Positions 1 through 44,048 of a stretch of DNA of 64,000 nt are shown in pieces. Under the pieces are notes generated by a model. The model was not told the DNA's origin. It saw nothing but the letters and a program-made list of their open reading frames with translations, and did not search any database. Each line of letters begins with the position of its first letter. The first letter of the stretch is position 1. A program made the position numbers and the translations under genes. Source of the stretch: Fusarium oxysporum f. sp. lycopersici 4287 (lineage: Eukaryota; Ascomycota; Sordariomycetes; Hypocreales; Nectriaceae); NCBI RefSeq assembly GCF_000149955.1, contig NC_030986.1, forward strand, positions 3,905,333-3,969,332. Reading direction: 5' to 3'.

Positions 1-1169
1 TTCCACTATCCTTAGGGTGGGTTGCTGCCCTTGAGATGGCACTATCTCCTTTTCTTGTTGGTAGGCGGCTGCTGGCGCGGCAGCGCCCCGGCTGCGTTCC
101 TTTTGAACGAGCTCCCATCCCATCATCCCACTTTGAGCCTCACGCAGCTTATTGGATAGCACGAACAGTATCAATGGCTGCATGTAGAGTCCGGCGAGCG
201 TTGAAGTTCTTCTTGATATTAGGCAGAAGGTTCTGGCTCTCGCCCTCGGCATTGATAAAGCCGGCGACGAATGGATGCTGGAGAGCCTCATGGGCAGTGA
301 TACGCTTAGTAGAATCGATAGTCAGGCAGCGCTGGATAAAGTCCTTGGCATGGCTGGAAACGCCGCGCCAGTATTCAATAGGTGTGAAACTATAATCTGC
401 ATTGAGAATGGCCTGCATCTCTTCGAAGTCAGAGTCACGATCGAAAGGAGTATAACCGCAAAGCAAGAAGTAGGTGATGACACCGAGAGCCCAGAGATCC
501 ACAGGCTTGCCATGACCTGTCTTCTTGAAAATTTCGGGAGCCATGTATCCAGGAGTACCACAGGTTGTAGTCAGGACGTGGAACTGTTCCTCATCCATAA
601 TTCGCGAGAGTCCAAAGTCTGCAATAAGCAAGTCTGCGTTGTCCTCGGGGGTTCGGAAGAGTAGATTTTCAGGCTTCAAGTCGCGATGGACGATACCATG
701 GTCATGGAGGTAAGCGACAGCTGACAGTGTGGCGCGAACCAAATCGGCAGCATCTGACTCAAAATAGGAGCCCTTTCGGCAAATTCGATCGAAAAGCTCA
801 CCACCTAGTGCAAGATCGGTGACGAGGTAGAGATTGTTCATGGTCTCGAAATAGTCGACAAGAGTAAGGATGTTTTGGTGGCCCATGGAGACCTTCTTAA
901 GCACGGCGATTTCGTTGCGAACCTATCGTTGCGCATGGCGTATTAGAAAAGGACAATGGACCTGGAATTTCAGGGGACAATAAAGCAATTCTCACCATGT
1001 GTTCGCGACCAGCCATGAGCCGCTTATTGATGACCTTGGCAGCATAGTAACGACCAGTGTCTATGTGGACACATTCTTTGACGACGGAGTATGAGCCAGC
1101 TCCCAGTGTCTTGCCAACCTTGTATCTACAAGGCTGAACTTGAGGCTGTTGGCGGGCTGCAGAATCCAT
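1..1169 (-). CDS. Calcium/calmodulin-dependent protein kinase (3' end beyond window; apparent frame break)
   Basis: Ser/Thr kinase of the CaMK I/II type, which phosphorylates targets in response to Ca2+-calmodulin. Exon 1 is 996-1169 and starts at ATG 1169. It holds the glycine-rich loop (GAGSYSVV) and the ATP lysine in AAKVINK. A 73-nt intron (923-995, GTGAGA donor) follows, and exon 2 runs down from 922. Visible in order are HRDLKPEN, DFGLSR, the CGTPGYMAPE activation segment and the autoinhibitory/calmodulin-binding stretch (ARRTLHAAIDTVRAI). The frame then meets TAA at 149-151. If one C of the CC at about 155-156 is dropped, the frame reads on as NKLREAQ, the usual fungal continuation, and stays open to base 1. 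I infer a one-base overcall or a true frameshift. The family is clear; the C terminus is not in the window. Confidence 0.9.
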
Positions 1170-21940: not shown

Positions 21941-24247
21941 CTATACGTATTGTTTAGATAGTGCTTGAACGACGAGCNNNNNNNNNNNNNNNNNNNNNNN
22001 NNNNNNNNNNNNNNNNNNNNNNNNNNNNNNNNNNNNNNNNNNNNNNNNNNNNNNNNNNNNNNNNNNNNNNNNNNNNNNNNNNNNNNNNNNNNNNNNNNNN
22101 NNNNNNNNNNNNNNNNNNNNNNNNNNNNNNNNNNNNNNNNNNNNNNNNNNNNNNNNNNNNNNNNNNNNATTCTGACATCGGCCGCCGCCGCCGCAAGGTG
22201 TACCATCGAGGAAGTTTTGGTTTCGTTGCGTACAGAAGCCATCGCCTGATGCCTGGCAAGACAAAAGACAGCTGTTGGTACAAGCCTTCACACTGGAGGA
22301 TGTCGTATTTTGATAGTTTGCTCGGCACTGCTCATCTCGCGATGTACACTGACCAGATGCGCACTGGAGGCTATCACCACAGTCTGTGCCATCGTCGCTG
22401 TGTTTGTCCTTGGGGCATGTCGCGCTGCTTCCTGTGCACTTCTCCTCGGGATCACAAGGGCCTGTGCTCGATCGACAAACAGTACCTGAAGATGCGAACT
22501 TGCATTTATCCGTGCAGCACTCTTCGTTCGAGTTATCGCACTCAGCCTGGCCCTTGAATTTGCAAGTCTTTGCATCACAGCAAGGATTATCGCCACAGCT
22601 GGCCTCACCGCCGCAGTCGCAATCTTCGCCTTCTTCGACGATTCCATTACCGCACTGCTGGCCCGAGATGGTCTTGACGTTTCTGTTATCAGTGAGGCAT
22701 TCCGTATTAACATTACGTCTGAAACCTGAGCAGATGTTTCCAATGGTGCAAGGAGAGAATTCACTGATTCCCTCCCTTGAAGATGGGTTCATGATGAAGT
22801 CACCCTGAGCATCACACGAACTCTTGCTCAAGGGGCAGCACGACTGCGCATCGGACGAGACTGGACAAGTCTGAGAAGTGCAATCATGGACGGCACCGAA
22901 AGTATGCCCTGTCTCGTGAGCAAATACCTGCCATTCTGCCGAAGTCTTGACAACCACATTGGCTCCAGCAACTGTCTCGTTACGACCTCCAGTGTTGGAG
23001 TTGGCTGAGGCCCCGGGGCGGCAGAGCTGACCCAGCCATGCAAGGCCAACAGCAGAGTCGGTGTTGCAAGTGCTCAGAAGAGTCCAGTAGGCGTTGCTGT
23101 CCTCATTCTGACCGCGCCAGGCGGAAAACAAGTTAAGGCGATCGGACAAGTCGACGCTGTTGGAACACTTCTGGTTCCAAGGAGCTGTATCCGATGGGCT
23201 TCCGGGGCATGATCCGTCACTGATGGTGAGGTTCTGGATACCCAGCGTAATGTTGAAGCTCTTTTCGTAAACTTCGGAGGCATCATTGACCATCCTTATG
23301 ACATTCTTCCTCAAAGCTTCAGTAGAGTTAAATGTGGAAGTGTATCCACAGTCAGTTGCGATTCCTAGAAGGGCAACCCTTCTGCTAGTTGGACAGCCGT
23401 TCACAGAACCAATTGTAGATTCAAGGTCAACACTCGAACCGTCGTTCCCTGTGCCTGTGTCGATAGATTGGCGACCGAAAAGGGATTTGGTGTTTGCCGC
23501 GCCAAATGTGTCAAAGTCTTGGAGCTCATGAAACTTGCTGTTGAAACCCAATGTGTCAGAGTCACAGAGTGCAGCCGAAGCCCCACGCCTCTTGAGCTCA
23601 GTAGGATTAAAAGACATGATATCCGAGTCCCGCCAGACAACCATAACATCATCCCGAGCCTCTGATGCTGACAGAATAGGGTCATCTTCATGTCGAACTT
23701 GCTGGTAGTTGGTGCCGGTATGGATATGGTGATGGTTGCCGTCGATCCGCAGAGTGCCCTCAAAAACAGGTTCCTTTCCATCGCGATGCATCGTTATCCT
23801 TGCCCAGCCAGCATTTGTCCAACCTTCCCGTCCGACTCGCTGAATAAACACATGTCCCTTGAATACTTTTTCGTCCTCCCGGTTTACTGTCTCGACAGAT
23901 CGCACGGCACCGTCGGCGCCAATGTGAGTAATAGCGAAGTTCTCGTGCAGAATGTCGTGGTTCGGTTCAAGCTTGAGGCGGATCTTTTGTTGTCCATTGT
24001 GTAGTGAGAATAGGAGATCAAAGTGCGAGTCGGCGCGTATACGGTGTGATGGTGTGTTGATTACAGGCTCATCGATGAAAGATATATAGTTAACGGCGTT
24101 GCGCTTAACTGAGCTCGCTATTCCGAGGATGTTAGAAGACTGCCCCGGACTATGAGGCAAATTTCGAGTGTTGAACATACCTAGTGAGGTTTCAAAGAAC
24201 AAAGCCACACCCGCAATAGCGGTCGCAATCGACCGCAATGATACCAT
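21941..24247 (-). CDS. ADAM-family zinc metalloprotease, fungal (C-terminal part lost in assembly gap)
   Basis: Secreted or type I membrane protease of the adamalysin/reprolysin class. ATG 24247 opens a hydrophobic signal peptide (about residues 1-23). A prodomain follows, with a possible cysteine switch near residue 228 (ALCDSDTLGF). The catalytic motif HETGHTFGAVHD is at about 444-455; its three His bind zinc and its Glu is the base. A disintegrin domain (about 530-620, CGNGIVEEGEDCDCGG then CCDAKTCKF) and a Cys-rich region come next. The reading is uninterrupted until 191 N at 21978-22168. Fungal ADAMs usually carry a transmembrane helix and short tail here, so those are probably hidden in the gap. 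The frame after the gap, and hence the true stop, cannot be fixed; 21941 is the end only if the gap size is exact. A (GGA)n repeat lies upstream at about 24533-24575. Confidence 0.9.
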   Translation of the reverse strand: MVSLRSIATAIAGVALFFETSLGMFNTRNLPHSPGQSSNILGIASSVKRNAVNYISFIDEPVINTPSHRIRADSHFDLLFSLHNGQQKIRLKLEPNHDILHENFAITHIGADGAVRSVETVNREDEKVFKGHVFIQRVGREGWTNAGWARITMHRDGKEPVFEGTLRIDGNHHHIHTGTNYQQVRHEDDPILSASEARDDVMVVWRDSDIMSFNPTELKRRGASAALCDSDTLGFNSKFHELQDFDTFGAANTKSLFGRQSIDTGTGNDGSSVDLESTIGSVNGCPTSRRVALLGIATDCGYTSTFNSTEALRKNVIRMVNDASEVYEKSFNITLGIQNLTISDGSCPGSPSDTAPWNQKCSNSVDLSDRLNLFSAWRGQNEDSNAYWTLLSTCNTDSAVGLAWLGQLCRPGASANSNTGGRNETVAGANVVVKTSAEWQVFAHETGHTFGAVHDCTSQTCPVSSDAQSCCPLSKSSCDAQGDFIMNPSSREGISEFSPCTIGNICSGFRRNVNTECLTDNRNVKTISGQQCGNGIVEEGEDCDCGGEASCGDNPCCDAKTCKFKGQAECDNSNEECCTDKCKFASSGTVCRSSTGPCDPEEKCTGSSATCPKDKHSDDGTDCGDSLQCASGQCTSRDEQCRANYQNTTSSSVKACTNSCLLSCQASGDGFCTQRNQNFLDGTPCGGGGRCQNXXXXXXXXXXXXXXXXXXXXXXXXXXXXXXXXXXXXXXXXXXXXXXXXXXXXXXXXXXXXXXXXLVVQALSKQYV
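21978..22168. other. Assembly gap (N) inside the ADAM gene
   Basis: 191 N replacing the expected membrane-anchor region of the metalloprotease. The true size is unknown. Confidence 0.99.
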
Positions 24248-35247: not shown

Positions 35248-38200
35248 ATGCCTTCTGATATCCGGTCTTTCTTTGGACCCAAGGGTGGTGGCGCCCCAAA
35301 ACCTGCCCCAAGAAGAGCTGAGGAGCTGGCCAAGAGCAAGCGCACAAGTAAGCCAAACGATACTACTCTTGGACTTACAACGGTACTAATATAAGTGCAG
35401 AGGGAAGAAAGGTCGTTGAAGATAGCGACGATGACGAAGATGAAGCAGTAGAGTAAGTTGTTTTCCTTCCACTTGTTATTACAACCAAGCTGATCCCAAG
35501 TAGAGTGCAAAAGCCTACCACTAAACCCGCACCAAAGAGAAAATTCAAGTTTGTCTTTGACTTCTGTCTTGTCAATTGCCCTCTGATTGACTTTTTACAG
35601 GGAGGAGGAAACCAAGGGCGTGGCTATTTCTGCTGATGATTACTTCGCTTCCGCAAAGAACAGCAAGCCTACAAGTTCAGCAACACCCAAAAAGCCTGCT
35701 GCAAAGCCTGATATTCCCGTTCGATCAAGTCCCCGAGGAAAACCTACTGCTTCGAAGCCCGCAGCACCAGCGAAGAATGGCAAAGCCCCTGCCACACGAA
35801 AATCAACAACCTCTTACTCACGCCACAATGCCGATCAGGATTCTGATGCTTACATGGATGACGGAGACGAAGACGACGAAGATATCTTTGCAGCTGATGC
35901 CAAGGGTGGAAGTAAGCGCAAGAATGACGACTACGAGGAGGACGAATCCGAGGATGAGGAACTTCCTAAGCCAAAGCGAATAGCGACCCGAGGCCGCCCA
36001 TCCGCCGTCAAGAAGGAAGAGAAGGAAGAAGAAGTCAAGCCTGCAGCAAAAGGCAGAAAGCGAAAATCTTTATCCGAAGACTCAGAAGAGTCTGAAGAAG
36101 AGGCTCCACGCAAGAAAACGGCTACAGCCAAACCTAAAGCTGCAGCCAAACCTCGGGCTCCAAGAAAGAAGAATGACGAGCCTGAAGATGATGAGATCAA
36201 GGATATTCTCGACAGTGTTGCCACCGTTCGTGCCCCTACACCACCGCCCAAAGATGCCAATGCCAAGTTTGATTGGCGAAAGAACGCATTCGGAGGCGGT
36301 AATGCATCTGCTCAGCCAGCTGCAGGTGCAGCTGACCTTCCTGAAGGTGCGGATGAATGCTTGACTGGTCTTAGTTTTGTCTTCACGGGTGTTTTGCAGA
36401 CCATCAGTCGTGATGAGGGGCAAGCTCTTGTCAAGAGGTATGGTGGTAAAGTTGTCGGTCAGCCAAGCAGCAAGACAAGCTTTGTGGTTTTGGGAGAAGA
36501 CGCTGGGCCAAGTAAGCTGGCAAAGATTAAGTCTATCGGAATCAAGACAATTGACGAGAACGGACTTTTCGAACTGATCCGCAAACTTCCTGCATTTGGA
36601 GGTGGCGGCAAAGGGGCCCAGAAGGCCCAGGAGAAGAAAAAGGCCGAAGAAGACAAAGTCAAGAAACAAGTTGCAGAGATGGAGGCCGAAGAGAAGGCTC
36701 GAAAGGCAGAGGCTGCGAAGGCCGCCAAAAAAGCGGCCGCTGCTGGAGGCCCTCCTGTGAAGGCTGCTGCGGCACCCCCCGTTCAGTTACTGACTTCAAA
36801 GTATGCGCCCACACAGCTCGGTCATATTTGTGGCAATAAGGCCCAAGTCGAAAAGATCCAAAACTGGCTCAGAAACTGGCCAAAACACAAGAAATACAAC
36901 TTTCAAAGAAGAGGTGCTGACGGGATGGGTGGCGAGCGCGCCATCATCATCTCTGGACCCCCTGGAATCGGCAAGACAACGGCTGCTCACCTAGCTGCGA
37001 AGCTGGAGGGATATGACGTTTTGGAGAGCAACGCAAGTGATACTCGAAGCAAGAAGCTCGTCGAAAACGGAGTGAGCGATGTGATGAACAATACGTCGCT
37101 TCTCGGGTACTTTGCTGGCGATGGCAAAGATGTGGATGCAACCAAGAAGAAGATTGTTCTCATCATGGATGAGGTTGACGGTATGTCTGCGGGCGATCGA
37201 GGCGGTGTCGGTGCATTGGCAAAGTTCTGCAAAAAGACACAGGTTCCCCTGATACTCATCTGTAACGAGCGAAGACTGCCCAAGATGAAGCCTTTCGACC
37301 ATGTAGCTTTCGACATCCGATTCAATCGCCCAACGGTGGACCAAGTTCGATCTCGCGTCATGACTATTTGCCATAGAGAAGGGCTCAAGCTTCCTCCTTC
37401 TGTGGTAGATGCTCTCATCGAGGGAAGCAACAAAGATATTCGACAGATCATCAATATGATTTCCACGGCAAAACTAGACCAGACCAGTATGGACTTCGAC
37501 CAGAGCAAGGCCATGTCTAAGGCTTGGGAAAAGCACGTCATCCTTAAACCATGGGACATCTGTCAAAAGATGCTGGCAGGTGGATTGTTCACCCCCGCAA
37601 GCAAATCAACACTCAATGACAAGATTGAGCTCTATTTCAACGACCACGAGTTCAGCTATCTTATGATACAAGAGAACTATCTCCGAACAAAACCTATGGC
37701 CTTGAATGGAAAGGGGTATAACCAACGCGAGCTCAAGCTCAAAGCTCTCGAACTGTTCGATAATGCAGCAGAGAGCATCAGCGACGGAGACCTTGTCGAT
37801 CGCATGATTCACGGACCTCAGCAACATTGGAGCTTGATGCCCACACATGCTGTGTTTAGTACGGTCCGCCCCGCCAGCTTTATAGCAGGCCAGCTCATGG
37901 GCTCCAACTTCACGTCGTGGTTGGGCAACAATAGCAAGTACGGAAGGTTGGGCAGATCGATTCGAGAGGTTCACTCTCACATGCGCCTCAGATCTTCTGG
38001 CGATCATAACGAGATTCGCCAGCAGTACCTTCCTATCCTTTGGACGCAGCTTGTAGATCGTCTACAAAAGCAGGGCAACGAGGCAGTGCCAGAGGTCATT
38101 GATCTGATGGACAGTTACTACTTGACTCGTGAAGATTTCGATGCTGTTCAGGAACTCGGTGTCGGACCGATGGACGAGGAACACATCAAGATTGAGACCA

Positions 38201-38598
38201 AGACCAAAGCTGCTTTCACCCGAACGTAGGTTGACCATTTACCCATGCTCCGACATGCAACTAACGAGCTCTCTAGATACAATGCAATGAGCCACCCAGT
38301 TCCCTTCATGAAGGCCAGCAATGTCGTCGCTCCCAAGGCTCAACCCAAGGAGGTTCCTGATCTTGAGGAAGCTGTCGAAGATGATGATGCCGAGGCAGTC
38401 GAGGCACCCGAAGTCGACGAAGAAGATGACGAAATCGATTTTAAGAAGGACAAGTATATCAAAAAACCGAAAGCCAAGAAGGTCACCAAGAAGGCGACCA
38501 AGGCTGCTGCCGACGACGAAGAAGAAGACGAGGACAAACCTAAGCGAGGGCGACCCAAGGCCAAGGCTACCAGTGCCAAGGCTAAGGGGAAGAAGTAA
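35248..38598 (+). CDS. RFC1: Replication factor C large subunit 1 (clamp loader)
   Basis: Large subunit of the PCNA clamp loader. Five exons give 1047 aa: 35248-35347, 35401-35452, 35504-35548, 35601-38225 and 38277-38598. The N terminus MPSDIRSFFGP is the PCNA-interacting motif seen at the start of RFC1 proteins. A long acidic/basic linker with AT-hook-like GRP cores follows (ATRGRPSAVKK). A BRCT domain lies at about 313-395 (LSFVFTGVLQTISRDEG), Walker A at about 515 (GPPGIGKTTAA) and Walker B at about 583 (IMDEVDGMSAGD). The RFC1-type collar then follows. The end is acidic and Lys-rich with another AT-hook-like KRGRPKAK. The third intron (35549-35600) has a less usual GTTTGT donor, but all joins keep frame. 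Confidence 0.96.
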
Positions 38599-39397: not shown

Positions 39398-42300
39398 ATG
39401 CAGGGCTCTGCATCCTACCCTGCTGCTCTTGGGAGCAGCAAATGGATCGCGAGCTTCCTAGCTAGGCACCGATATGACGACGGCATCTACGCCCGTACCT
39501 CTACCAGTAAGTCGATACCAATATGTTGTCTTCTATCACGTCGAGAGCATCATACTGATATTATGGTAGGACCTTCTTCGCCGCAAGAAGTCAAATTCCG
39601 TGACTTTGTCAAGAAGAGTAAAGCTGAGCTGAAAAGTGAGCTTCATACCCACCCGTCAAAGCATATCAGGAATATACTAGATCATGTACTAACTGGCATT
39701 TCAAGATGTATTCTCTGCGAATGAAAAGAAAAAGTCCGAGGCGGGCGCCGATGGTATGGAACTGAGTACTTTGTTTACCTATTTGCTCAACTAACCTTTG
39801 CCCTTCTAGAACTACGCAACGCGAACGACACCGGCCCAGAACGAAAGAACAAGAAACTATCCTGGGCAAATATATTCGATACAAAGTCAGGAAACAAGCT
39901 TCATAAGCGAGCAAAGTCCGCTCCGGGTGACATTCACGTCCCACATCAGCTTGATCCTATCACCGAAGTCGGTGAAAGTAGGGAGACACAAGCCGACCTC
40001 GTATCTGCCAACACCTCATCACGAAAGCCTGTTGGCGAGAACCATCAGTGCTCTACTAGTCGTCAGACGGACGGCGACGACGTGTCTGTTTTGACAACAT
40101 GCACAACTATAATCCAGCAAGCTAACCTTCAGGGCGTCTCTGAAGGAAACGCCCGCGATGCCGCTACCAACGATGAAAGCACCGCGATCGGCGGGCGAAA
40201 CTGTACATCCAACCCATCCACGCATCTCAGCAGTGGAAACTCAAACAACACTGAAGACGAATATCCTTCTCTAGAAGAAAGCGACAACACATCAGATGGC
40301 TGTGTAGCCTCAATGGCACGTTACGAGCTTCTTACATCTCAAAGAGAATACTTTGTTACTCTACAGAAAGATATTACTCTACAGAGAGAGAAGGCTGAGC
40401 GAGAGCGCATTGATCTACGGACATACATTACTAAATAGGAAAAGGATGTTCGACCGGAAGAGAATGCTCGACAGGAGGAGAATGTTCTACAGGACGAGAA
40501 CCCTGGGCAAGAACAGATAAACAACAAAGATCTCACGAGTAAATCGTCGTCAAAATTTTCATTGAGATCTGTCTTGAGTATGTTCATGGGCAGCGACGGG
40601 TCTGATGAAGAAGCAAAAGCCAAGAGTGATGGGACCAGAAAGTTGAAACGCAAGGGCCGACTATCTCCTCGATTGAGAACATTGCTGATTGGAAAGACCA
40701 AGTCGGAGTCTTCTACCAAGAGCCATTCCCAATCCTCCTCGCAAGATCTCAGCCAGAGTGATGCGCAACTTGCCAATCAAATTGTCGAGTAAGTATTCTT
40801 TGCAGATGTATTCAGCGCGATCGAGAACACTAACAACAGTTTTACAGGCAGGATAGAACATTCAAGGGCCTTGATTGGAAGCTTCCAGTTGGGCAAAACG
40901 AAATGGGCCAGCTTATTCGAGAGTTCTCTGGCGACCTCAACACTGCCACGCAGGAAATGGTTCACAAGACCCCTGTTTCCCCAAAGACTTCAAGCCTCCA
41001 GTCATATCCGTCAAAGTTTGATATTTCGATAGACCAAAATCTCCTCCCTCGGCCTGCAATGGCTCCGGCCTTATATTCTCACGACCAAGGCCACAACCAA
41101 CAAGTGCGCAATGAACCCACTAGCAAAGACACTCTGGTTGCTAAGGCAGTTCACATGGAGAACAAACAGGCGCAGCTTGTTGAAATCAAGACTCGATCTG
41201 ACCGAGCCATGAACCAAGATACTCGTGGTGACGCCAACCAGAATCAAGTTGCGCAAGAAGTTGGCCGATCAGGCAAAGAACCAGTCGAGCGTGATACAAC
41301 CAACGGTAAGTTTCCACAAGTCTTTTTCTCGTACAAACTAACAGCTCCTAGACGTTCACCCACCACGGACCTGGCAGCACGGAGGAGACCCTGCAGAGGT
41401 CGAGACTGTTGAAGAGGTAAGTTTGCTGTGGTATTGGCTAGGACATAACCGAGATCAGACGTCTGACTGTCAGCTGTAGGCATATGCCCGCCACCGAAGT
41501 TCTCTTGCAGTTGTTGATCGAATTCGTAGCGTAGGGCTGCTTGGACCAAACGTCGATGAAACAAAATCGATCGCCGCAGACGAACCGAAAGAGTTGGACG
41601 AACGGCGATTGCTGCGAGAGATGACGGAGGACTTTGAGCTTTCGCCCCATAAAGTCGCCTTCAATGAATCTTTGATCGCCGCCACGAACAACTCTCAAGT
41701 TATCCCGAGTATCGAGCATCAGAACACTAACCTTGGGTGCGAGGGGCAGAAGACCCCAGAACCAAAGGTTGAGCAGACTGACGATGCCAGTGACCAAACT
41801 GAGTTGATCCTGACAAGAGCCAGAAGCTCGGACAGATTCGTCCCTGAGGGATTGTATTACCAAGAATCAGTGGACGGCGAATAGTACTACGCCGCCACTG
41901 ATGACATGGTATCCGAATTACAGGGATTTGAGGAGGAAGAACTCCCAGAGGACTTTACTCCAGGACAACCAGCCACGGAGGCTTTGATGAAGGAGCTCGA
42001 GATAGAGAGGCTTGGCGGATTTTTCACAACCCTCCAGAACGTCCGGAACGAAAGCCTTGAGCAATTGATTGGTAAGTTGACACATGCTGCTCTCTCTCAT
42101 AGACTTACTAAATCGCATAGCTGCTCGCGATCCTAGAGCTGTAGTCACTTGGCGAGATGAAGTTGCCGAGTTGACCTCGAACGGCGGGATGATTCGTAAC
42201 GACAAAGCAGAACAGCTGTACCAACCAGCTCCTTCAACTGCCGGGAGTGATGGAGCATTGTCTGCCATGACTTACAAGCCAAGTCGTGTAAGTATATTTC

Positions 42301-43002
42301 CCTTTCTGTCTTTCAGTCTTTGATGCTAATATGAAACTCCAGGCTGAAGTCAAAGCCGCCCTCGCGCACCCAGAAGCGCCCGTCATTCAGGGCTGTAAGC
42401 CACGAAGGGTTCTCACCGAATGCGACCGTATCCAGGAATATATTCACATAGATTCCCTGGCAAAGAACAAATACACCTCTCAGATGCAACCGGCTATGTC
42501 CCGAAACGAAATCATCCTCGACGAGTGGGATCGAGCAGATGCAGTAGCCTGCATACACAAGCACAACCAGCAGCAGAAGCTGAAGCAACAAGAGGAAGAG
42601 AGCGAGGAGGCAGCTCGTCGCCGGCGTCTCAAGATCTACCGATCTGTGGAAAGACACATCGTCAAGGGCCGGCGCCTTGCGGTCAAAATCAATCGCGAGG
42701 CGACCGCCGCCTTTCAAATGTGCGAGTACTTGGATGAAGAGTACGAGAGGTTGAGGGGGCAAATTCTCCGTTATGCCGAAGATTGTGGCCATGAGCCCAC
42801 TGACAACCTGCAACACGCCGTCGATCTCATCCGAAAAACGCAGCAGGAAGAGGAAATCACGTACCGCAAGTATGAGGGGTGTGAGTCTGCGGATCCTGAG
42901 AGCCCCGAATCCGTGGTGGCTGCTCACTATGGTCGCGATTATCATGAAATCGCTGGTAACCATGTCGACAAGACCGTTGATCCAGCCAACGAGTTCTTTT
43001 GA
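39398..43002 (+). CDS. Orphan nine-exon gene with two in-frame UAG codons (candidate A-to-I edited gene, or recent pseudogene)
   Basis: Not recognised. Nine exons keep one frame: 39398-39506, 39570-39635, 39706-39753, 39810-40788, 40848-41305, 41352-41416, 41480-42071, 42121-42287 and 42343-43002. All eight introns have normal GTAAGT/GTATGG/GTGAGC donors and AG acceptors, and lengths are 46-70 nt. The 1048 codons are interrupted only by UAG at codon 284 (40436-40438) and codon 710 (41882-41884). Without recoding, the product is 283 aa. The protein is polar: a basic N-terminal patch (KKSKAEL, KRAKS), Gln/Glu coiled coil around the first UAG, and a Ser/Lys-rich middle. A charged helical C terminus (QQQKLKQQEEESEEAARRRR) follows. 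No signal or membrane segment is seen. Open frame and intact splicing long after both stops argue against old decay. Stage-specific UAG-to-UGG editing is one explanation; readthrough or recent CAG-to-TAG mutation are others. Confidence 0.7.
41868..41900 (+). promoter_or_regulatory. RNA hairpin presenting the second in-frame UAG in its loop
   Basis: Left arm 41868-41879 (with A41874 bulged) pairs with right arm 41890-41900 in 11 Watson-Crick pairs. The 10-base loop 41880-41889 contains UAG 41882-41884. Fungal A-to-I sites are reported to prefer U at -1 and hairpin loops, and both are met here. Folding was judged by eye. Confidence 0.6.
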
Positions 43003-44048
43003 TCTCCTACCAACAGAAATGGGAGACGACGAAGCAGAGAAAAGGTGAAAGAAAGAAAGAAAGAAAGAAAGAGGAAAATAAGAAAAAACACGAATAAAAA
43101 AAAAGACATCTACTGCAGAGACTGTTTATTTGAGGCTCTCTTTAAACTACTTGCTTACTTACCACAACATCTCCAGAAGTCACACGATATCTCGACAGCT
43201 GGCTCTACATTGGAAACCAAGATTTAACAACCCTACATAAACAACTTGGTGCAGCTATTTAGCGCCCACAGATACCTAGCTATCTCCCTTTTTACCTATT
43301 GCTTTTGCCATGAAGTGCAAGACTATCATGATGATACATACCATGATACCCACGATGGGCATACGCCCAAACACGACTTGACGCAGCGATGAGCGCGCGC
43401 GCTATTGGCTTTGCCTTTGGTTTGCTTTTATACTTGCTTTTCCCTTTGCGATGTTTGTCTACGAGACTGACCTACGACGATATGGACCAAACGCCCCATC
43501 CACTTGCAAAAAGTTGAGACAACACCTACCAATTACTATCATATGAACTTTTGTTCCTACCAGCCACGATGTTGAGATGAGAGGGCATTAAGCGTCCCAA
43601 AACCCCAGAAGAGTCCTACAGGATACCGAGCACCGATGGAAGGACGAAGATGAGGATTGCTTGTTTGATTTGTTGGTGTTTTTTTTTTTTTTTTTTTTTT
43701 GGAAGTGTCTAACTGTTGGTCAATGGTTGCTGCCCTGAGCTGAAGAAATTAGATCAAGATTGTTAAACCGGCTCTGGTACAGATTGCTAGACTCTGGATT
43801 TGAGAGGATGTCTTGGTGAAGAGTAGATACCAGAACCAGACAGGTTAGAATCAGACAGTCAAGACTGATTCGTTGTAAATATTGCTCCTGGTGAAGTGAC
43901 GCGTGCTAAAGTCTCTTGATGTGAAATAACTATGCTTAGTTATATCATCACCAACGATCCTTTGTGATTATTTGCCTTGAGATCTTGTATTACTCGGTCA
44001 TTAATTCGTTATCCGCAGGGTATCATAAACAGCGTTCCAAAGCTCCCA
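43003..44048. other. Convergent intergenic region with simple repeats
   Basis: About 1 kb between convergent genes. It holds a (GAAA)n tract at about 43049-43072 and a 22-T run at 43679-43700. No gene is seen. Confidence 0.6.

What the first reader, a model, noticed from the sequence alone, without database searches (positions are those of the whole stretch)
39398..43002. Orphan gene readable for 1047 codons except two UAG stops: candidate A-to-I recoded gene
Seen: nine exons and eight well-formed introns hold one frame on both sides of UAG codons 284 and 710. The frame stays open for more than 700 codons after the first stop, and both stops are UAG. Known: Fusarium graminearum and Neurospora edit A to I in mRNA during sexual development, and a set of genes with premature UAG is restored to UGG (Trp) in perithecia. 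Inference: this may be such a gene, producing a 283-aa vegetative form and a full-length sexual-stage form. Alternatives are recent CAG-to-TAG mutation or stop readthrough.
Basis: partly seen in the sequence, partly recalled or inferred. Interest (0 to 1): 0.9.

Follow-up and report, generated by a model that had tools for sequence, protein, structure and literature searches.

The report
Twice-stopped Fusarium gene awaiting RNA editing
This gene, from a fungus whose proteins match Fusarium oxysporum, has two stop codons inside a 1047-codon reading frame, and public protein models from a dozen related species break at the same two places while the code beyond stays readable, so the stops are likely decoded by A-to-I RNA editing, which matters because that editing is known mainly from sexual stages never observed in this fungus.

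Summary
In detail: nine exons give 1047 codons broken only by UAG at codons 284 and 710. The gene is no orphan: 38 protein records match it or parts of it, the named ones all Fusarium. In F. oxysporum and near relatives, 21 of 21 proteins spanning codon 284 lack a residue there (17 skip it with a predicted intron, 4 end at it); 18 of 18 lack one at codon 710 (14 skip, 4 end). Skip boundaries are mutually incompatible, the published signature of edited stops hidden by automated annotation (PMC4817773). Sequence after the stops is about as conserved as before. UAG710 sits in the loop of a 13-pair hairpin, the most stable of 498 hairpin-loop TAGs in the window; 36 of 20,000 synonymous codings fold as well. 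UAG284 has only a weak hairpin. Ame1 and Tad3 homologues carry residues published as needed for editing. No RNA could be examined; editing is inferred. Best reading: a new member of the known premature-stop-correction genes, notable for two distant stops in a species without observed sex.

The parts
39398..43002 (+). Nine-exon gene, 1047 sense-or-UAG codons plus TGA; introns 39507-39569, 39636-39705, 39754-39809, 40789-40847, 41306-41351, 41417-41479, 42072-42120, 42288-42342
   Evidence: exon structure mostly followed by homologous proteins
39398..40435 (+). N-terminal segment, 283 codons (interrupted by introns); F. proliferatum, F. verticillioides and F. musae have annotated proteins of exactly 283 aa
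40436..40438 (+). In-frame UAG, codon 284; candidate editing site A40437 (U at -1, G at +1, A at +3); weak local hairpin
40355..40438 (+). 84-nt stretch (codons 257-284) that automated models of relatives splice out; poor donor (GTTACT); T content 0.23, between exons (0.19) and real introns (0.32); third-position GC 0.33, below the rest of the gene (0.49-0.58)
40439..41881 (+). Middle segment, codons 285-709 (interrupted by introns)
41866..41902 (+). Predicted RNA hairpin: 13 base pairs with one unpaired A, 10-nt loop 41880-41889 containing UAG710
41882..41884 (+). In-frame UAG, codon 710; candidate editing site A41883 (U at -1, G at +1, A at +3), in the hairpin loop
41885..43002 (+). C-terminal segment, codons 711-1047 and TGA (interrupted by introns); no Pfam family passes its cut-off; annotated alone as a separate protein in several relatives

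Best explanation
The gene is a conserved protein-coding gene interrupted by two UAG codons whose full-length 1047-residue product would likely be made only when A-to-I editing of the mRNA turns both UAG codons into UGG. Unedited mRNA would give a 283-residue protein and, with introns downstream of the stop, is probably degraded. Editing of site 284 alone would give 709 residues and editing of both sites 1047. Editing would be done by the tRNA deaminase pair Tad2-Tad3 with the cofactor Ame1, acting on the adenosine in the hairpin loop. Shown here: the gene anatomy, the breaks in relatives' protein models, the conserved frame after the stops, the predicted strong hairpin at UAG710, and the cofactor homologues. 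Inferred: that relatives' stops are UAG, that editing happens, when it happens, and what the protein does.
For: Positional conservation: 21 of 21 proteins of F. oxysporum and near relatives that span codon 284 lack a residue there, and 18 of 18 (one of them the more distant P0018) lack one at codon 710. In 16 of 17 skipping models the exon restarts exactly at codon 285, and in 5 of 14 exactly at codon 711 (read by eye; the aligner put the YYAATDD residues elsewhere), so codon 284 or 710 served as an intron's AG end; a stop codon ending in AG is TAG (inference, assuming GT-AG introns). Incompatible models within one species: F. xylarioides P0007 versus P0033, F. proliferatum P0017 versus P0025, F. 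oxysporum P0001, P0003, P0015, P0035. Conserved frame: identity to the window before, between and after the stops is, for example, 83/84/90% (P0002), 84/78/81% (P0004), 82/76/73% (P0013); neutral expectation about 9 new stops. Hairpin at UAG710: -21.6 kcal/mol, z -6.57, 0 of 200 shuffles as good; lowest energy of the 498 TAGs, out of 1172 folded, that lie in a hairpin loop; 36 of 20,000 synonymous codings as good, and none of 56 control positions with so low a z. Machinery: Ame1 homologue with M,V,E,R,D,H at the published spacings, two paralogues without the full set; Tad3 homologue with H-M-H-P spacing and the inactive V. Published precedent: PUK1 and 69 further genes hidden by false introns (PMC4817773, passages).
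Against: No RNA was examined. UAG284 has no strong hairpin (z -1.43 and -2.17 against shuffles; z -0.44 and -0.89 against synonymous codings). By probability of lying in a hairpin loop, regardless of stability, the sites are not outstanding among the 18 UAGs of the transcript: UAG710 ranks 3 to 5, UAG284 5 to 9, depending on flank. Relatives were seen as proteins only, so the stop type, the hairpin and dN/dS in them are unseen. One relative of unknown species, P0030, ends at the position of codon 277, six codons early. F. oxysporum has no observed sexual stage (PMC10318998, PMC13097639, passages). In two distant relatives (P0020, P0021) a sense residue, though unsafely aligned, faces codon 710.
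Confidence: 0.72

Rival explanations
1. Mixed decoding: UAG284 is removed by an alternative in-frame 84-nt intron (40355-40438), while UAG710 is edited. FgBUD14 is a published gene where a stop is handled by both editing and alternative splicing (PMC11156358).
For: 14 of 17 skipping models use exactly codons 257-284; 84 nt is a multiple of three; UAG284 has no strong hairpin; the stretch's third-position GC is lower than that of the rest of the gene.
Against: Donor GTTACT scores 1.9 against 5.4-9.8 for the eight real donors, on a score built from those same eight; the CTAA branch-like motif lies within 5 nt of the AG (sequence); F. proliferatum P0025 has Ile at codon 257, so no GT can stand at that donor; the 27 residues before the stop align without gaps between the window and four related species.
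Confidence: 0.12
2. Both stops lie in real introns and the gene is an ordinary spliced gene.
For: 14 protein records (P0001-P0014, 12 named taxa) are modelled with a skip at both positions.
Against: Boundaries are mutually incompatible between and within species; the 45-nt candidate 41840-41884 has donor GTCCCT, score -2.1; four proteins end exactly at residue 283 and four at 709; the flanks of UAG710 form a hairpin that synonymous sequence rarely gives.
Confidence: 0.07
3. The stops are decoded by programmed translational readthrough, or the downstream parts are separate genes.
For: Six proteins are annotated as a stand-alone C-terminal part starting at the Met eight codons after UAG710.
Against: The stop contexts UAG-GAA and UAG-UAC are not the known strong readthrough contexts (recalled); the same species is also annotated as one gene (P0007 and P0033); residues between UAG710 and the Met are conserved in the four models that show them (YYAATDD twice, YYDATDD, CYAATDD); the hairpin loop over UAG710 fits editing, whereas readthrough structures lie downstream of stops (recalled).
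Confidence: 0.05
4. Pseudogene or recent nonsense mutations in this strain.
For: Two stops in one frame; no product known.
Against: Both breaks appear in models of 13 named taxa, F. oxysporum included; the post-stop frame is intact at 73-90% identity in near relatives outside F. oxysporum, where neutral drift should give about 9 stops at 78%.
Confidence: 0.03

Closest known systems
PUK1 and the 69 PUK1-like premature-stop-correction genes of F. graminearum (PMC4817773)
   Same: In-frame UAG inside a conserved coding region, avoided in automated annotation by false introns; U at -1 and G at +1; hairpin-loop placement (UAG710)
   Different: PUK1's two stops are adjacent (UAGUAG) in a kinase domain; here they lie 426 codons apart in a protein without a recognised domain; editing not yet seen; host has no observed sexual stage
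CHE1 of F. graminearum and relatives (PMC11169179)
   Same: Conserved premature UAG across related Fusarium species; the three kinds of mis-annotation described there (ends at the stop, false intron, restart at a later Met) are all seen here too
   Different: CHE1 has one such stop and zinc fingers and is edited in hyphae, more so under oxidative stress; for this gene stage and trigger are unknown
FgBUD14 (PMC11156358)
   Same: A premature UAG that may be handled by editing, splicing, or both, which remains possible for codon 284 here
   Different: For FgBUD14 both events are reported; here the intron rests on gene predictions and has a poor donor

Membership tests
Fusarium premature-stop-correction (PUK1-like) genes | In-frame UAG inside an otherwise conserved coding region | tested here: met
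Fusarium premature-stop-correction (PUK1-like) genes | Stop hidden by false introns or truncations in automated annotation | tested here: met
   17 skip and 4 end at codon 284; 14 skip and 4 end at codon 710; boundaries incompatible. That the introns are false is inferred, not shown by RNA
Fusarium premature-stop-correction (PUK1-like) genes | Sequence preference: U at -1, A or G at +1 and +3 of the edited A | tested here: met
   Both sites have U at -1, G at +1, A at +3 (sequence; preference from PMC11156358)
Fusarium premature-stop-correction (PUK1-like) genes | Edited A in a stable hairpin loop (preference, not absolute: 62.4% of sites in PMC4817773) | tested here: inconclusive
   Met for UAG710; UAG284 lies in a loop of the best fold at +/-30 nt but not at +/-20 nt, and is not more stable than synonymous codings
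Fusarium premature-stop-correction (PUK1-like) genes | A-to-G change in RNA, specific to or highest in perithecia | not testable with these tools
   No RNA data held
Fusarium premature-stop-correction (PUK1-like) genes | Gene listed among the published edited genes of F. graminearum or F. verticillioides | not testable with these tools
Fungal Tad2-Tad3-Ame1 mRNA-editing machinery in the window's genome | Ame1 residues M500, V501, E546, R548, D589 (H629 and S531 as spacing marks) | tested here: met
   L009 (G000:C4:1885891-1886931) matches all by spacing; paralogue L010 has E, D and H but not MV or R, and L011 has D only (residues from PMC11087585). Not aligned to the F. graminearum protein itself
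Fungal Tad2-Tad3-Ame1 mRNA-editing machinery in the window's genome | Tad3 residues H114, M120, H130, P178 and inactive V in the catalytic core | tested here: met
   L022 has the H-x5-M-x9-H-x47-P spacing and HCV where active deaminases have E (residues from PMC11087585, and PMC11156358)

The most novel reading that the evidence does not exclude
F. oxysporum, a fungus never seen to mate, keeps a gene that can be read in full only if two far-apart UAG codons are both edited. The gene works as a three-state switch (283, 709 or 1047 residues), and its maintenance shows that F. oxysporum still runs the editing programme, either in a hidden sexual stage or in vegetative cells.
Probability: 0.35. 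Interest if true: 0.85.

Novelty: new member of a known kind. Interest (0 to 1): 0.6.

Why it matters
About 70 F. graminearum genes are reported to need UAG-to-UGG editing (PMC11156358), and that editing is tied mainly to fruiting bodies, with rare hyphal cases such as CHE1. A gene with two distant stops, held in a species complex whose sexuality is disputed (PMC10318998 argues for sex from population data; PMC13097639 treats it as asexual), gives a molecular test of that question: look for edited transcripts of one gene. It also suggests that most public annotations of this gene are wrong.

Tried and rejected
Recent nonsense mutation: rejected, since the same breaks recur in models of many taxa. 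Ordinary introns over both stops: judged unlikely on donor scores and incompatible boundaries. Paralogue as source or rescue copy: none found; the C-terminal segment matches only itself in the genome, 3 exon matches at this locus. Domain or function: no Pfam family over its cut-off in the three window segments or P0019, P0020, P0022, no NCBIfam match for P0001, P0019, P0022, no PDB match for the 25-row profile at E up to 0.1. AlphaFold of the C-terminal protein P0033 with six relatives gave mean pLDDT 43.1, too low to use, so no fold search was made. PUK1 as an in-genome positive control: of 134 kinase matches listed (122 of 300 candidates scored), 16 contain a TAG, and 7 of these 16 were read; they look like intron ends or match edges, and PUK1 was not identified, so this control failed. 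Outgroup state at codon 710: alignments too weak. Relatives' DNA: by their descriptions the collections with scans left hold bacteria, archaea, viruses and plasmids; none was scanned, so dN/dS, stop type and hairpin covariation in relatives were not tested.

Dropped before the counts: P0018 is left out of the codon-284 count (more distant, different local sequence) but is in the codon-710 count; P0019-P0024 are left out of both as too distant to align; P0029 and P0031 do not reach codon 284; P0030 stops short of it; P0036 starts downstream of the Met. The 57 member sequences behind P0015 were not seen individually.

Full report
What is there. The window lies in a 61.2-Mb genome of 71 contigs. 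The gene's protein is 100% identical to a partial F. oxysporum Fo5176 record over the aligned 56% of the N-terminal segment (P0029), and 97-98% identical to three F. oxysporum records in the segments they cover (P0003, P0015, P0016); a fourth, P0001, is 90-93% identical. So the host is taken to be F. oxysporum (inference). The 337-codon C-terminal segment has no second copy found in the genome.

Relatives. A search with X at the stops found 24 proteins, one with the N-terminal segment found 7 and one with the C-terminal segment found 7. All named ones are Fusarium. The 17 closest models (P0001-P0017) all lack codon 284: 14 skip exactly codons 257-284, three skip other stretches that include it. 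Four more (F. proliferatum, F. verticillioides, F. musae at 283 aa; F. globosum at 302 aa with an extra insert) end exactly there. That makes 21 of 21. At codon 710, 14 of the 17 skip it and three end at residue 709; the more distant Fusarium sp. DS 682 (P0018) also ends there, 18 of 18 in all. In DS 682 the neighbouring locus tag encodes the downstream part (P0018 and P0037). Six proteins consist of the C-terminal part alone, starting at the Met after codon 710 (P0032, P0033, P0034, P0035, P0037, P0038). A result against strict conservation: P0030, from an unnamed source, ends at the position of codon 277.

Why the skips are probably not introns. They differ between close species and within one species. 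In the window, the favourite candidate (40355-40438) has donor GTTACT, scored 1.9 against 5.4-9.8 for the eight real donors on a score built from those eight; the candidate 41840-41884 scores -2.1. F. proliferatum P0025 has Ile at codon 257, which cannot supply the GT. The 27 residues before codon 284 align without gaps between the window and four relatives, with 15-17 of 27 identical to the window for the three compared. Base composition is less clear: T content of the stretch (0.23) lies between exons (0.19) and introns (0.32), and its third-position GC (0.33) is below the rest of the gene. The same signature, exons falsely annotated as introns to avoid UAG, led to 69 edited genes besides PUK1 (PMC4817773, passages read), and all three kinds of mis-annotation described for CHE1 (PMC11169179, passages read) occur here.

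Selection. Identity to the window in codons 1-255, 285-690 and 718-1047 is similar in each near relative. A substitution-only neutral simulation over the 762 post-stop codons gave 9.35-9.49 new stops on average at 78% identity, with 0 of 400 runs stop-free. Other gaps of five or more residues exist in the models, some shared (539-545 and 609-614 in several relatives) and some isolated (59-74 in P0001 and P0013, 847-865 in P0003, 319-335 in P0014); since gene models can hide a stop in a false intron, single hidden stops in single relatives are not excluded. dN/dS could not be computed without relatives' DNA.

RNA context. Both sites have U at -1, G at +1 and A at +3, the published preference (PMC11156358, parts 1 and 2 of 3 read). 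UAG710 lies in a 10-nt loop closed by 13 pairs (41866-41902): -21.6 kcal/mol, z -6.57, 0 of 200 shuffles as good; the lowest energy of the 498 hairpin-loop TAGs among 1172 TAG triplets folded on both strands (the 674 TAGs outside hairpin loops were not ranked); 36 of 20,000 synonymous codings as stable at +/-20 nt and 8 of 8000 at +/-30 nt; z -3.74 against a lowest control z of -2.66 at 56 positions. UAG284 is ordinary in the same tests: z -1.43 and -2.17 against shuffles, 5962 of 20,000 and 1463 of 8000 synonymous codings as good; it lies in a hairpin loop of the best fold only at +/-30 nt among the two flanks tested there. By loop probability alone, regardless of stability, neither site stands out among the 18 UAGs of the transcript: UAG710 ranks 3 to 5 and UAG284 5 to 9. 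So the structural case for editing is strong at 710, through hairpin stability, and weak at 284.

Machinery. Of three DUF726 loci found in the genome, one (L009) has M,V at -31,-30, E at +15, R at +17, D at +58 and H at +98 from the catalytic Ser, the spacings of the residues studied in F. graminearum Ame1; L010 has E, D and H only, L011 D only (residues from PMC11087585, passages and section 17 read). L022 is a Tad3 homologue with the H-M-H-P spacing and V in place of the catalytic residue; L023 looks like Tad2. The editing apparatus therefore appears intact at the residues checked; its expression is unknown.

Mechanism. The likeliest reading is stepwise stop correction: unedited mRNA gives 283 residues, editing of site 284 gives 709, editing of both gives 1047. 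Decay of the unedited mRNA is expected from introns lying downstream of the stop (general knowledge). The structure model of the C-terminal part is too poor to use, and the protein's function is not known; a role in sexual development is inferred only from the kind of gene.

Known or new. By membership this meets the features of a premature-stop-correction gene that could be tested here, except that the hairpin test is inconclusive at 284; the decisive RNA test is open. It may already sit in published tables for F. verticillioides, which could not be opened; six homologue locus tags occur in 0 papers of the held library, and a search for F. oxysporum with RNA editing, stop codon and hairpin listed one review on synthetic biology (listing only). 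What would be new is its occurrence in F. oxysporum, considered asexual (PMC13097639, passages) or cryptically sexual (PMC10318998, passages), and the two stops 426 codons apart.

Noticed in passing
   Followed up: partly
P0020, P0021 at the position of codon 710: F. longipes and F. heterosporum models seem to carry a sense residue (P or Q, alignment unsafe), hinting that UAG710 arose within the genus.
   Followed up: partly
window 266-931, minus strand: Protein kinase domain; the TAG counted at its upstream edge looks like an intron end.
   Followed up: partly
window 35587-38229, plus strand: Upstream neighbour is the large subunit of replication factor C (RFC1, BRCT and AAA domains).
   Followed up: no
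window 21941-24247, minus strand: Uninterrupted 768-aa frame with reprolysin and disintegrin domains, an ADAM-like metallopeptidase.
   Followed up: no
G000 contigs C3, C6, C62: Eleven kinase-domain matches of the same length with the same four internal stops (3 TGA, 1 TAA), apparently a repeated family; introns not excluded, identity not measured.
   Followed up: no
window 43050-43075 and about 43680-43701: GAAA tandem run just after the gene's stop and a run of about 20 T further downstream.
   Followed up: no
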